64,000 bases of DNA from Candidatus Nitronereus thalassa (GTDB lineage: Bacteria > Nitrospirota > Nitrospiria > Nitrospirales > UBA8639), in assembly GCF_032191465.1 (NCBI RefSeq), contig NZ_JAQOUE010000001.1, positions 992,001 to 1,056,000 of the forward strand, written 5' to 3'. The stretch's first letter is position 1. Each line of letters begins with the position of its first letter. The notes beneath the pieces are model-generated. The model saw nothing but the letters and a program-made list of their open reading frames with translations. It did no database searches and had not been told where the DNA came from. The position numbers were made by a program, and so were the translations under genes. Of the stretch, positions 48,937-58,481 are shown in pieces.

Positions 48937-49878
48937 GATCTACAGGATACCCGATACAAGAAAAATTTACATATCCAATTTTTACGGCAACCAATAATTA
49001 CCGAGAAATGGTTACGGCAATACTGGTCTTCTCCAGATTTCGTGGACTGGTTAGTTCAGAGTTTTTAAGAACTGGTCGGCTTATACACTCGGCACCAGCC
49101 CCTCAGAAAGGGAATACTGACATTGCGGAATATATTATAGAACCGTTCCCTGAGATCAAAGATATCGGTTTGGACTTCGGCACGAATCCGATACTGACGC
49201 CGGTTTACGCATTCCCGTTTCAGCAGCCCTCAAAAAACTTACTACCACATTGCCATAACAATTGACCTCTCTGTTCACACTACTCACGATCCCATGTTTG
49301 CCAAGTGATTCCTGATAATCAGGACCGGTATGCTTCGTGGCCCAATCAGAATAAAAGGATAACGAGCTCAGGCATTGCTATTTTCCACACTGCCATCAGG
49401 ACAGCTTGAAGCACCAATTCACGACCAAGTTGGGGCGGCATCGACCAACCAATGACTAGTCGTGAGTATAAATCCAAAATCACCGCCAGATACAGCCAGC
49501 CTTCTACTGGGCGGATATACGTTATGCCGGTTACTCATTTCGCATTGGGTATCGTCGCGGCAGATCACCTAACTGGGCTCGTTACTCTATTTACTGGATT
49601 ACTTGCATTTGTCGCTGCCACCTTGGTACAAACTTGATCCGTTGTATTTAGAGACACTCGCATTAGATATAGGTGCTACTCTCTTTGAAGTTTCACTAGG
49701 CACTGGGGCCTCGTCGCCTTGCTCTTCTAATAAATATCGTTCGTTTGATTAAATTAGTGGTAGGAATAGTCAACAACGCGCAGCGATCATTTGAACTTAG
49801 AACCCTTGCTTTAGTACCCGGCGGGTTGATCCTGCTCGCAGCGGGTAGGTAGCGTGTTGAACACTGAGAGAATATCCG
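48937..49878. other. Gene-poor scar region with a transposase remnant
   Basis: This stretch holds the decayed IS3-family transposase described separately. The rest (48937-49079 and 49532-49878) shows no gene I can support. A short hydrophobic plus-strand frame at about 49524-49637 ([20 protein letters not shown]) starts inside the remnant and could be the 3' relic of a membrane protein. Confidence 0.5.
49080..49531 (-). pseudogene. Decayed IS3-family transposase (OrfB/DDE integrase) fragment
   Basis: Read on the minus strand from 49531 the frame gives [19 protein letters not shown] and [20 protein letters not shown], the rve/DDE core of IS3 transposases, then meets TGA at 49348. One base over, it continues as [34 protein letters not shown] and VVVSFLRAAET (family: SDxGxQY..., NCYDNAxxESFF). 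A further frame change gives YRIRAEVQTDIFDLRERFYN. At least two frameshifts and a missing 5' part make it inactive. Confidence 0.8.
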
Positions 49879-50616
49879 GTGGGGGATAAACCTACAATTG
49901 CTCTGATTCTTCTGGTCTTCAATGAAATTGACGGTCTAAAGGCAATCGTCCCTGCAATTGACCAGTCCTTGTTCAACGAAATAATCCTGGTGGACGGTGG
50001 CTCCTCGGATGGATCGACAGAGTTTGCACGCAAAGCAGGCCTTCGTGTTATTCAGCAAAGAAAACCAGGGCTTTCAGAAGCTGTGTTAGAGGCTGTCTCG
50101 GCAGCCACGTCCGAGTACTTAATCGAATTTAGTCCAGACGGAAACTGCAAGGCGGATGATCTGCCGAATCTCGTAGCGAAGATTCGCGAAGGCTACGACT
50201 TAGTTGTTGTTTCGCGATATCTTCCTCCAGCAGTGTCCTACGACGATACAGCTATTACGCACTTCGGAAATTGGATGTTCACAAAGATGATCGGAATGCT
50301 TGGCAGCCCCGTTGTTACGGACGCGCTTACAATTTACCGAGGATTCCGGCGCGAGATTCCAATTTCTCCAAGCTTCAAACGCCTCCTGGTTGGGCCAGTA
50401 TTTGAACCATTGGTTACGGCTTGGGTACTTGGAAATGGCCGATCCTACGCTGAAATTCCAGGCGATGAACCCCGACGCATCGGTGGGGAACGAAAGATGC
50501 GCGTTATCTATAATGGCAGTTGCATTATCTATATGGTCGTTCGAATGTATCTGCTTAAGCTGACCCGCAGAATTTTTATGCTAAAACCGCGACGGCTTCC
50601 GCCTAGCTCTCACTAA
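49879..50616 (+). CDS. Glycosyltransferase family 2
   Basis: The protein has 245 residues. GT-A motifs: PTIALILLVFNEIDGLKAIV, LVDGGSSDGST and FSPDGNCKADD, as in dolichol-phosphate-mannose-synthase-like enzymes. A GTG start at 49879 with a weak Shine-Dalgarno is the best in view. A C-terminal hydrophobic segment (CIIYMVVRMYLLKL) may lie on the membrane. It lies next to the Rieske gene (20-base gap) in the segment after the transposase remnant. The sugar is unknown. Confidence 0.78.
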   Translation: MGDKPTIALILLVFNEIDGLKAIVPAIDQSLFNEIILVDGGSSDGSTEFARKAGLRVIQQRKPGLSEAVLEAVSAATSEYLIEFSPDGNCKADDLPNLVAKIREGYDLVVVSRYLPPAVSYDDTAITHFGNWMFTKMIGMLGSPVVTDALTIYRGFRREIPISPSFKRLLVGPVFEPLVTAWVLGNGRSYAEIPGDEPRRIGGERKMRVIYNGSCIIYMVVRMYLLKLTRRIFMLKPRRLPPSSH

Positions 50617-50635: not shown

Positions 50636-51553
50636 ATGTCCAACTTCCAGAAGATGGTAAGCGCGATGTCCGTAGATCCAGACGCATTACGCGCTCAATT
50701 AGAATCCATTGACACTAAAATGTCAGTGACCCATGGATCCTATGCGGTCCAATCCGCTGCGTCGGTTCCTGACCTTGATTGGAACCACATGGATCCGCAT
50801 CACCGCCAATTCGTTCACGGTACTTATGGCAGGTCACTCCGTCTCTGCACGGGAAAGGACTTTCAGGTCTCGATCACCAAGTATGGAATTTGGCCAATAT
50901 TTCTTGTCGTCTCTGATGTTCGGCTAAGGCCAGGTTTATTCTATCAGTGTTTCTCGCTTTTCGGCTTGGTTACCGTAATCTCCGTAATCCGCTCCGTTGA
51001 GCAACAGAGTGGAACGAGGCAGCAAATCGATTGGTACATTCTTTCGAAGCGGCTGTTGAAGTTTGTTCATCCGTGGTTAAGCAAGAGAATAGAGCGACTC
51101 AATCGAATCCAAAACGAGGAAGACAAACCGATCCGAGAGCGCCGTTGCCAGTTGCGGGATCAAGGATATCGGTTTGTTTCGGATCAACCAGATTTTCTGG
51201 TCGCGAGCTCGCTGGCGAACAATGTCATCCCTCCAAGGCTTGAGGGCGAGCACGCAGTAGCAATTGACGCTGCATCTCCGGCAACACTTAAGTCCTTCCG
51301 TGTCGGGAACCTCGAGTTCTTATATCTAAGTGACGCAGCCGGAGGTTTAAAACTCTGGCCCGCCGTATGTTCGCACGAAGGGGGTCCCCTAGAGAAGTCG
51401 CTCATTCCGGCTACAAGTGGCCGCCTCAAGTGCCCCTGGCACGGAATGGAGTTCAAGGGGGTTCACCTAACTCGCGAACAGCCAACCGGGTTCTGTGGTG
51501 GCACACGCTTGCGATTAGAAGGCTCTCATCTTCTGATTTCGCCGGAATCCTAG
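50636..51553 (+). CDS. Rieske [2Fe-2S] domain protein in the polysaccharide locus
   Basis: The protein has 305 residues. The C-terminal 90 or so residues hold the Rieske ligands Cys245-x-His247 (VCSHEGGPLE) and Cys266-x2-His269 (CPWHGMEF). Residues 1-215 are unrelated to any family I recognise, with a hydrophobic stretch at about 84-118 (FLVVSDVRLRPGLFYQCFSLFG) and a basic helical region after it. It is probably the electron-transfer part of an oxygenase or desaturase acting on a lipid or sugar; no catalytic non-haem iron triad was spotted. It follows the GT2 gene in the same direction. Confidence 0.75.
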   Translation: MSNFQKMVSAMSVDPDALRAQLESIDTKMSVTHGSYAVQSAASVPDLDWNHMDPHHRQFVHGTYGRSLRLCTGKDFQVSITKYGIWPIFLVVSDVRLRPGLFYQCFSLFGLVTVISVIRSVEQQSGTRQQIDWYILSKRLLKFVHPWLSKRIERLNRIQNEEDKPIRERRCQLRDQGYRFVSDQPDFLVASSLANNVIPPRLEGEHAVAIDAASPATLKSFRVGNLEFLYLSDAAGGLKLWPAVCSHEGGPLEKSLIPATSGRLKCPWHGMEFKGVHLTREQPTGFCGGTRLRLEGSHLLISPES

Positions 51554-52804: not shown

Positions 52805-54601
52805 TCAAAGAGAGCTATGTCGTTCCGTTTGCAATTCGTTTGATGCGCAAGAGCTTGGAGCTTTACGAGGAACCAAATCAAGAGAGGTTAGTGACATCAC
52901 GTATTCGCGCAATTTCTCGGGTTCGAAGAACTTATAGTAGTAGTAGGTGAAAACCATTTGGTTTGTCTGAAAGCCGGGGCCGTGGCTAATAATGAGCGCA
53001 GCTTGCCGCCCACAGGGTTCAAAAGAGTTGGGGATGAACACTGGGAATTGAGTTATATGAAAATTCGGAAAGAAAACTGGATTCAGCACTTGGGCATCAG
53101 TTTTCGAATACCACGGCCCTTCTTGTGCCTTGTCGGAAGAGGCACTTTCGTAGAAGACAAATCTACTAAAATCTCCCAATGCTAATTTGAAGGCGTTGTC
53201 TGGATGTAAAAACATGCTCGAATACCCGTGTGGAAGACGAACCCGATCAAAACCCTCAACTACAAGGTCCCTTACCCCAAATACGTGTATGTCACCTACT
53301 CCCGGCAATTGCTTGAGGTTTGTAAGAATTGAATGATTCTTTATTGCCTCTGCCTGCCATGTTTCATACACGGAAAGTCGATACATACCGAACGAGCAAA
53401 TTAGGGCCACCAACGTAGCGATATAAATCCGTGGCCATTTGCGCAATAATATAGCCAACGCACTTAGTAGAAATAGCGCCATCGGCAGCATGATTAAAAT
53501 GCGATTTCTCGCGGACCCGTCTGAGTCCCACCTGCCAAGTCCTCGATCGGTTACGGCGTAGGGAAATACTCCAAGAAAAATTAGAAGTAGTGCGAAACAA
53601 AGAATCCAAAAAGGGTTCGGACTCGCCGAACTCCATACAGCCGTAAGTAGTTTGCCGCTCTTCTTAAGCATGAAGAATAAAGCGACAAAGACGAATAGAA
53701 ACGTGAGTGAGTAAAGTCCAACCGCAAAAATCTGAGTAATAACGAGCCTGGCAGCGGAGAGATAAATTCGAAATACTTGGTACAGATCGATATGGATTGG
53801 AGTATGAGCTAGACCCACACCGTAGGGAGATACGATAACTTGGCGCCAGATCCAGAATATGAACGGGATGGCTATCAGGTCCCAATATTCAGCTATGAAG
53901 GACCGAACTGTTTGCGGAAGCAGATCATTTCTTGCGGAATGAGAACGAAGCAAAAGTACGGCTAGAAACCCGAAGTGGAATACAAGCAATGAATTAAGTC
54001 CGAACGACAAGAAGAACAGGAAACCTGCGGCCATCCTGTAAAGCACTCGAAGGAAACGAACTTTGGATTCGGATTCAAGAACGACGAGCGCTGCAGTCCA
54101 AAAAGCCGCATAGCAGATGAAGTGAAACACCAGATTAATATGTGCCGTCGTCAAATGGCCAGGATAAACAACGGCCAATATGGCCAGCAAGGCTGCCTGA
54201 GCTCGGGAGAAATAGCCAAGCTTTGCCAGCACACCAAAAGTCGCCAAGGAAGCGATTAAAAGAAAAATGAATGCGGTAAACTTGAAGAAAAAGATGCTGT
54301 TCGGAAGCTGGCTTAACGGCCACATCAAATAGGCGGGAATGAGGTGTCCATACATTCCGAAGTGACCGAAAAATGTATCTTTGCGACCATCAATGAACCA
54401 GTCGTATAAAAAGAAATCCTCAAAGTACAACCCATCGTTTACCAGCAAAGGCCAGTGAAATGCGACCACTGCGACAGTAACGATTGCGAGACTTGGCAGC
54501 CAACCTCCCGCATGAGGCTCACTTCCACCCAAACTCGGCACTGTCTTGTCATAAGTGAGGGGTACTCCAGGTGTTGTTCTCTCACCCAAACCGTTTCCCA
54601 T
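52805..54601 (-). CDS. Polytopic membrane protein, glycosyltransferase-like
   Basis: The protein has 598 residues. A first helix (LAIVTVAVVAFHWPLLV) and an acidic loop (YFEDFFLYDWFIDGRKD) precede about ten further helices and a soluble C-terminal domain (about 430-598). This layout resembles GT-C membrane glycosyltransferases of the dolichyl-phosphate-mannose protein mannosyltransferase type, with an acidic D/E motif in the first loop. I can not name the family. It is isolated by gene-free regions on both sides. Confidence 0.65.
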   Translation of the reverse strand: MGNGLGERTTPGVPLTYDKTVPSLGGSEPHAGGWLPSLAIVTVAVVAFHWPLLVNDGLYFEDFFLYDWFIDGRKDTFFGHFGMYGHLIPAYLMWPLSQLPNSIFFFKFTAFIFLLIASLATFGVLAKLGYFSRAQAALLAILAVVYPGHLTTAHINLVFHFICYAAFWTAALVVLESESKVRFLRVLYRMAAGFLFFLSFGLNSLLVFHFGFLAVLLLRSHSARNDLLPQTVRSFIAEYWDLIAIPFIFWIWRQVIVSPYGVGLAHTPIHIDLYQVFRIYLSAARLVITQIFAVGLYSLTFLFVFVALFFMLKKSGKLLTAVWSSASPNPFWILCFALLLIFLGVFPYAVTDRGLGRWDSDGSARNRILIMLPMALFLLSALAILLRKWPRIYIATLVALICSFGMYRLSVYETWQAEAIKNHSILTNLKQLPGVGDIHVFGVRDLVVEGFDRVRLPHGYSSMFLHPDNAFKLALGDFSRFVFYESASSDKAQEGPWYSKTDAQVLNPVFFPNFHITQFPVFIPNSFEPCGRQAALIISHGPGFQTNQMVFTYYYYKFFEPEKLREYVMSLTSLDLVPRKAPSSCASNELQTERHSSL

Positions 54602-57842: not shown

Positions 57843-58481
57843 CTAACTTAAAAAACCTACCAGCACATATCTCGGCTCAGCAGCAAATGAGGCTATCGGT
57901 GTCACCATATGGGGCGGTCGCCTCTTTCCATGATTCAACAGGATCAACTGATTGAATTTTGGAAGGGATGGGACCATGTTATCGCCATCAGCTGTCATGA
58001 GAATTCCACCCCAATCCCACTTCCAATTTTTGCTAAGATAGTAAATAAATCCTACCGGCCCTGCGTAATCGTCAATATGAACACGGTACTGATCTCCATC
58101 GGTCATTTTGTATGCCCGAAGATCAACTTTTTCAAAATGCGTCCCTGAGATATCTTGAACTATTGGCCGTATATAATTTTCGAAAAACTGATTGAGGGAT
58201 TTCCCAGACTCAAGAGATGGCGAACGCCAAAACCTTGCAATATAATGTTCCCCAGCTTTTGGGAGATACGGGGAATCGGTTTTGAATACATGTTCATAAT
58301 GATGTTCACGAATTTGCTCGATTCGCTCATACTCAGCCCCCTGGAACTTCATGCGAACGTCTTCGGCAATCAACTCAGGCAACGCCTGCTCAATCACAGC
58401 CATGCCATAATCGTTAAATTGACGACGACTTCCAACATTAAGAGATATTGGAGGAACATTAGACCGACTATTCATATTCAT
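57843..58481 (-). CDS. 2-oxoglutarate/Fe(II)-dependent oxygenase
   Basis: The protein has 212 residues. Iron ligands are His135 and Asp137 in YRVHIDDY and His191 in RRPPHMVTPI; Arg204 in EPRYVLVGF should bind 2-oxoglutarate. The fold and length fit prolyl-4-hydroxylase-type enzymes. It hydroxylates an unknown substrate, possibly a sugar or amino-acid-like part of the glycan or a surface protein. It is separated from its neighbours by 145 and 321 bases. Confidence 0.82.
   Translation of the reverse strand: MNMNSRSNVPPISLNVGSRRQFNDYGMAVIEQALPELIAEDVRMKFQGAEYERIEQIREHHYEHVFKTDSPYLPKAGEHYIARFWRSPSLESGKSLNQFFENYIRPIVQDISGTHFEKVDLRAYKMTDGDQYRVHIDDYAGPVGFIYYLSKNWKWDWGGILMTADGDNMVPSLPKFNQLILLNHGKRRPPHMVTPIASFAAEPRYVLVGFLS

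What the first reader, a model, noticed from the sequence alone, without database searches (positions are those of the whole stretch)
50636..51553. Rieske protein with unknown N-terminal domain in a sugar locus
A complete Rieske ligand set sits at the C-terminus while the first 215 residues match nothing I know. Rieske domains are usually N-terminal in oxygenases, so the order is unusual, and a partner reductase is not seen nearby.
Basis: partly seen in the sequence, partly recalled or inferred. Interest (0 to 1): 0.55.

Follow-up and report, generated by a model that had tools for sequence, protein, structure and literature searches.

The report
Rieske oxygenase with domains swapped
A single bacterial gene in a surface-sugar locus appears to encode an oxygen-using iron enzyme whose two standard parts are joined in the opposite order from the usual one, which would make an unusual natural test of how electrons move through this enzyme family.

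Summary
The ORF is real and as described: 305 aa, an intact C-terminal Rieske domain (PF00355) and about 205 N-terminal residues with no Pfam, NCBIfam or credible PDB match. The N-terminus is not featureless. Residues ~35-182 carry N50-x2-D53-x2-H56-x4-H61 and, 102 residues later, D163 (EEDKPIRERR). This is the mononuclear-iron ligand pattern of Rieske oxygenases (SxtT: D161, H164, H169, D280). They align end to end, weakly, with the catalytic DUF5914 domain of Rieske-first CrtV-type oxygenases. The two BLASTP matches to one such protein cross: C-terminal half to N-terminal half (E 2e-8), N-terminal half to C-terminal half (E 0.002). Best reading: a Rieske oxygenase with inverted domain order, catalytic first and Rieske last. 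It probably acts on a product of the surrounding surface-glycan locus, fed by a reductase encoded elsewhere. No relative of the N-terminal half was found in 234 other genomes of the order, nor in plasmid, phage or viral collections, so the claim rests on one sequence. Both AlphaFold models failed (mean pLDDT 39-40), so the fold is not shown. A decayed chimera or an unrelated N-terminal domain remain possible. New variant of a known kind.

The parts
50636..51553 (+). Gene for the 305-aa protein, proposed catalytic-first Rieske oxygenase. The start codon may also be the ATG of M7 or M11; no clear ribosome-binding site was seen.
50738..51181 (+). Residues ~35-182: proposed mononuclear-iron catalytic domain, DUF5914/CrtV-like
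   Evidence: BLASTP E 0.002 to P0002 residues 175-320; alignments A3 and A4; hhalign with controls
50792..50818 (+). D53-P-H-H56-R-Q-F-V-H61: proposed bridging Asp and the two iron-binding His
   Evidence: pattern as in SxtT (passages of PMC7293229)
51119..51145 (+). E162-D163-K-P-I-R-E168-R-R: proposed third iron ligand (D163) and the conserved ERR
   Evidence: alignment A3; hhalign
51182..51247 (+). Linker, residues ~183-204
   Evidence: no counterpart in the compared proteins
51248..51550 (+). Residues ~205-305: Rieske [2Fe-2S] domain
   Evidence: PF00355; hhalign to the DUF5914-protein Rieske domain E 2.9e-11
51368..51442 (+). Rieske ligands C245-x-H247 ... C266-x2-H269
49879..50616 (+). 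Family 2 glycosyltransferase, 19 nt upstream on the same strand; probably co-transcribed
   Evidence: PF00535 E 3.8e-19; spacing

Best explanation
A Rieske non-heme iron oxygenase in inverted order: an N-terminal catalytic domain (residues ~35-182, compact, DUF5914/CrtV-like) binds Fe(II) through H56, H61 and D163, with D53 as the bridge residue, and the C-terminal domain holds the Rieske [2Fe-2S] cluster. Shown: the Rieske domain, the ligand pattern with its spacing, and a weak collinear match. Inferred: the metal site, the helix-grip (SRPBCC) fold and the activity. Likely working: a reductase and perhaps a small Rieske ferredoxin encoded elsewhere in the genome reduce the Rieske cluster. Its electron passes to the mononuclear iron, probably of a neighbouring subunit as in canonical trimers. 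The activated O2 hydroxylates or demethylates a sugar or lipid-linked intermediate made by the surrounding surface-polysaccharide locus, probably the product of the adjacent glycosyltransferase. The substrate is a guess from context.
For: Two crossing BLASTP matches to one Rieske-first DUF5914 protein: residues 213-273 to its 59-116 (E 2e-8) and residues 46-182 to its 175-320 (E 0.002). N..D..H....H occurs once in 23,811 residues of open frames of at least 120 aa in the window, here, and in 4 of 20,000 shuffles of the N-terminus. H61 to D163 is 102 residues; SxtT H169 to D280 is 111, L002 H185 to D296 is 111. D, N, P, H, H and the later D..ERR are invariant across 8 aligned sequences. Smith-Waterman against L003: 13 of 20,000 shuffles as good. 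hhalign with the DUF5914 domain: 0 of 67 control chunks and 0 of 300 shuffles as good. All Rieske ligands are kept and the frame is open.
Against: Pfam does not recognise the N-terminus. Both AlphaFold models are unusable (mean pLDDT 39.8 and 39.1), so the fold is untested. hhalign against canonical oxygenases of the order is no better than chance (25 of 300 shuffles, 7 of 67 chunks). Against five Streptomyces DUF5914 domains the raw match is weak (15 to 141 of 1000 shuffles as good). Of 349 natural protein chunks, 5 score as well or better by BLASTP; all 5 come from loci fetched because they resembled DUF5914/A3, and with those loci removed it is 0 of 237. In uncorrected Smith-Waterman, 5 of 349 chunks reach the single-domain score and 22 of 349 the score summed over 7 domains. 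No orthologue exists to show selection. The domain lacks about 27 residues present in DUF5914.
Confidence: 0.66

Rival explanations
1. Decayed chimera: a rearrangement, perhaps by a mobile element, joined the tail of one Rieske oxygenase gene to the head of another. The ORF survives but makes no working enzyme.
For: A degraded integrase (rve) remnant lies upstream at 49349-49534. No orthologues. Codon score lower than all 33 other window genes scored. The catalytic domain is shorter than DUF5914.
Against: All Rieske ligands and all proposed mononuclear ligands are intact in a 305-codon open frame without stops. In-frame codon score exceeds the other frames. The linker joins the domains at their natural boundary.
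Confidence: 0.16
2. The N-terminus is an unrelated, undescribed domain (for example substrate or partner binding) and the protein is an electron-transfer Rieske protein; the D..H....H pattern is chance.
For: No profile match for residues 1-207, no oxygenase among PDB sequence matches of the N-terminus or of the A3 profile, no credible model. D..H....H without the N occurs in 234 of 20,000 shuffles.
Against: The motif, the later acidic ligand and the ERR motif occur in the right order and spacing and align with the very family that also gives the Rieske domain's only matches in the genome collection scan.
Confidence: 0.15
3. Same enzyme design, other substrate (a sub-case of the best explanation): it acts on a carotenoid or other lipid, as proposed for CrtV, and sits in the sugar locus by chance after horizontal transfer.
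For: Closest relatives found are DUF5914 proteins in carotenoid clusters. The locus shows a mobile-element remnant and a local rise in G+C, 0.50-0.52 against about 0.42-0.45 on either side.
Against: No carotenoid gene among the window genes profiled. It lies 19 nt behind a glycosyltransferase on the same strand.
Confidence: 0.25

Closest known systems
CrtV-type Rieske oxygenases (Pfam DUF5914, PF19299), e.g. L003 P0002 and Streptomyces crtEIBV clusters
   Same: Rieske domain of the same type; N-x2-D-P-x-H-x4-H and (D/E)D-x4-ERR catalytic motifs; similar total size of about 305-340 aa
   Different: They are Rieske-first and lie in carotenoid clusters; this protein is Rieske-last, in a surface-glycan locus, and below Pfam recognition. 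CrtaV is described as a Rieske oxygenase and candidate carotenoid hydroxylase in PMC5993118 (passages read); that paper says the homologous genes are dispensable for isorenieratene in S. griseus.
Canonical Rieske oxygenases (SxtT, GxtA; also DdmC, KshA)
   Same: Rieske C-x-H/C-x2-H and D-x2-H-x4-H ... D pattern (passages of PMC7293229 on SxtT and GxtA)
   Different: They have an N-terminal Rieske and a C-terminal catalytic domain; here the order is reversed and the catalytic part is shorter
Rieske-first oxygenases in the same bacterial order (alignment A2, e.g. L037)
   Same: DPVHGPYVH motif like DPHHRQFVH
   Different: Rieske-first, 360 aa; profile match to our N-terminus not above chance
CMP-Neu5Ac hydroxylase (recalled, not from a call)
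   Same: A Rieske enzyme that hydroxylates a nucleotide sugar (recalled)
   Different: Its second half is a metallo-beta-lactamase-like fold (recalled); no such match here

Membership tests
Rieske non-heme iron oxygenase | Rieske ligands C-x-H ... C-x2-H | tested here: met
   C245/H247/C266/H269, PF00355 above cut-off
Rieske non-heme iron oxygenase | Mononuclear-iron 2-His-1-carboxylate ligands in a D-x2-H-x4-H ... D arrangement | tested here: met
   D53, H56, H61, D163 by pattern, spacing and alignment; metal binding itself not testable
Rieske non-heme iron oxygenase | Helix-grip (SRPBCC) catalytic fold | tested here: inconclusive
   Two AlphaFold runs, mean pLDDT 39.8 and 39.1
Rieske non-heme iron oxygenase | Rieske domain N-terminal, catalytic domain C-terminal | tested here: not met
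   Order reversed. This is why it is called a variant and not filed as an ordinary member.
Rieske non-heme iron oxygenase | Electron-donor reductase or ferredoxin available | tested here: inconclusive
   None near. Genome has 3 FAD_binding_6 places; 7 Rieske places including this one, of which I read three as small ferredoxin-like frames
Rieske non-heme iron oxygenase | Alpha-3 assembly with inter-subunit electron transfer | not testable with these tools
   needs structure or biochemistry
DUF5914 / CrtV | Match to PF19299 | tested here: not met
   No Pfam match of residues 1-207 up to E 10; PF19299 does not match the window's own genome at E 0.1
DUF5914 / CrtV | Carotenoid gene neighbourhood | tested here: not met
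   Neighbours profiled are glycan and housekeeping genes

The most novel reading that the evidence does not exclude
A naturally domain-inverted Rieske oxygenase (catalytic domain first, Rieske last), the founding member of an undescribed architecture. It would show that the Rieske and catalytic domains need not be joined in the canonical order, and its electron path (within or between subunits) could differ from that of known trimers. It would also bring Rieske oxygenation into bacterial surface-glycan synthesis.
Probability: 0.5. Interest if true: 0.62.

Novelty: new variant of a known kind. Interest (0 to 1): 0.45.

Why it matters
Characterised Rieske oxygenases are described as N-terminal Rieske plus C-terminal catalytic domain, with cluster and iron about 45 A apart in one monomer and electrons crossing between subunits of a trimer (passages of PMC7293229). 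A working reversed-order protein would let one test whether that geometry depends on chain order, and would give engineers a second way to wire the two domains. The glycan context hints at a Rieske-type modification of a surface sugar or its lipid carrier.

Tried and rejected
Whole-protein and N-terminal searches for relatives gave none beyond the Rieske domain. Genome contigs: 2 loci, matches at residues 216-273 and 213-273. Family: 16 of 48 genomes match, all but the own one from residue 198 onwards. Phylum: 2 of 395 with the whole protein (own, and G203 at residues 202-304) and 2 of 395 with the N-terminus (own, and L025, rejected because it lies antisense to a 780-aa ORF). Order: 1 of 235, the own genome. 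Plasmids: one Rieske-only match for the whole protein, none for the N-terminus. Phages: none. Viral contigs: none. The A3 profile in 395 phylum genomes hit the own genome and 4 others weakly (E 4.6e-4 to 0.0059) with partial matches; I judged these by range and frame length only and did not inspect them one by one.

PF19299 in 196 genomes of the order gave matches in 21, 0 above cut-off. Of 22 loci translated, six read as canonical Rieske-first oxygenases and became A2; loci on the minus strand were read in the wrong orientation there and not re-read. A search of viral contigs with A1 gave nothing and with A2 one locus, not used further.

Structure: two AlphaFold jobs, alone and with DUF5914 fragments, both unusable; no fold search was run on them. 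No Rfam family in 40000-64000. The neighbouring glycosyltransferase's best plasmid relative (36.2% identity, S. magneticus) has no annotated Rieske gene within 8 kb. Paper searches on reversed or permuted Rieske oxygenases, DUF5914 and Rieske enzymes in polysaccharide loci listed none that I recognised as describing such a protein; of these I saw only the listings. Passages were read of PMC7293229 (found) and PMC5993118 (found).

Full report
OBSERVATION. The ORF 50636-51553 (+) encodes 305 residues. Pfam finds one domain, Rieske PF00355, at residues 217-274, and the four ligands are C245, H247, C266 and H269. NCBIfam gives nothing, PHROGs only a chance-level match. The N-terminal 207 residues give no Pfam match up to E 10 and no credible PDB sequence match. 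Codon statistics favour the annotated frame over the other five but are lower than in all 33 other window genes scored.

WHAT THE N-TERMINUS IS. The genome collection returned two loci whose Rieske domains resemble ours, L002 and L003. Their proteins are Rieske-first with a C-terminal DUF5914 domain (PF19299, E 1.1e-63 and 1.7e-64). BLASTP of our protein against the L003 protein gives two crossing matches: our C-terminal 213-273 to its 59-116 (E 2e-8), and our N-terminal 46-182 to its 175-320 (E 0.002). The second contains DWNHMDPHHRQFVH against LANRLDPWHGVHYH and EEDKPIRERR against IEDVAYAERR. Across eight sequences the columns of D46, N50, D53, P54, H56, H61 and the later D163 and E168-R-R are invariant.

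In SxtT the mononuclear iron is held by H164, H169 and D280, with D161 bridging at the subunit interface (passages of PMC7293229). That is D-x2-H-x4-H, then an Asp 111 residues later; here it is 102 later. The DUF5914 proteins show the same at 111 residues in L002. hhalign of full DUF5914 proteins with Rieske-first oxygenases of the same order (A2) places the DUF5914 motif on DPVHGPYVH. In Streptomyces the DUF5914 gene sits behind the phytoene desaturase and phytoene synthase genes, the crtEIBV order, whose V product is described as a Rieske oxygenase and candidate carotenoid hydroxylase (passages of PMC5993118). I equate DUF5914 with CrtV from this gene order; I did not compare the sequences named in that paper.

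CONTROLS. N..D..H....H occurs once in 23,811 residues of open frames of at least 120 aa in the window and in 4 of 20,000 shuffles of the N-terminus; D..H....H alone occurs in 234. Smith-Waterman against the L003 domain: 13 of 20,000 shuffles reach it. Against the other domains the result is mixed: L002 1 of 1000, five Streptomyces domains 15 to 141 of 1000. hhalign with the DUF5914 domain profile: 0 of 67 window chunks and 0 of 300 shuffles reach it; with the canonical oxygenases: 7 of 67 and 25 of 300, no signal. By BLASTP 5 of 349 natural chunks beat it. All five come from loci fetched because they resembled DUF5914 or A3; after removing those loci it is 0 of 237. In uncorrected Smith-Waterman scores 5 of 349 chunks reach the single-domain score and 22 of 349 the score summed over 7 domains. 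Those chunks were cut from all long open frames of loci that I had fetched, 29 Rieske-like frames left out, so they include antisense frames and are not a random sample. The homology is therefore likely but not proven by sequence statistics alone; the ligand pattern and the Rieske partner carry much of the weight.

STRUCTURE. AlphaFold without an alignment gave mean pLDDT 39.8, and with four DUF5914-protein fragments 39.1. Neither tests the fold.

CONTEXT. The gene follows a family 2 glycosyltransferase by 19 nt on the same strand. Around it are a UDP-GlcNAc 2-epimerase, a group 1 glycosyltransferase, a Wzy_C O-antigen ligase family protein, an asparagine synthase, a 2OG-Fe(II) oxygenase and methyltransferases: a surface-glycan locus. 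Upstream lies a degraded integrase-core remnant that is single-copy in the genome. G+C rises to 0.50-0.52 over the gene. The genome holds seven Rieske places, of which three read as small ferredoxin-like frames, and three FAD_binding_6 places; none of the others is near the gene, so an electron donor elsewhere is possible but unidentified.

DISTRIBUTION. The N-terminal half was found in no other genome of the order (0 of 234 others), nor in the phylum sample except one antisense artefact, nor in plasmids, phages or viral contigs. The genome-contig scan used exact 8-residue patterns and would miss divergent relatives. The organism was not identified.

MECHANISM. Inferred: reductase, possibly a Rieske ferredoxin, then the C-terminal Rieske cluster, then D53 and Fe(H56, H61, D163), probably across a subunit boundary, then O2 activation and hydroxylation or demethylation of a glycan or lipid-linked intermediate. 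Which substrate, and whether electron transfer is within or between subunits in this order, is unknown.

VERDICT. A probable domain-inverted Rieske oxygenase, known from one sequence; a new variant of a known kind. None of the paper searches listed a paper that I recognised as describing such an architecture, and they cover only open-licence papers.

Noticed in passing
window 49349-49534 (-): Remnant of an integrase core (rve, PF00665, E 9.5e-9) in an otherwise non-coding stretch between two glycan gene blocks; single-copy in the genome.
   Followed up: yes
window 57843-58481 (-): A second oxygenase, 2OG-Fe(II) type (PF13640), lies in the same glycan locus; possible parallel oxidation of a glycan or carrier.
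   Followed up: no
window 52805-54601 (-): A 598-aa hydrophobic protein with no Pfam match at E 1e-4; position suggests a glycan-locus membrane enzyme.
   Followed up: no
L063 826-1791 (+): A 321-aa open frame with a C-terminal Rieske domain behind a long N-terminal region, in the same genome; looks like a respiratory-complex Rieske protein with an extra N-terminal domain.
   Followed up: no
L033, L037, L039, L041, L048, L050: Highly similar Rieske-first oxygenases of 360 aa (77-81% identity to the first) in several genomes of the same order; function not examined.
   Followed up: partly
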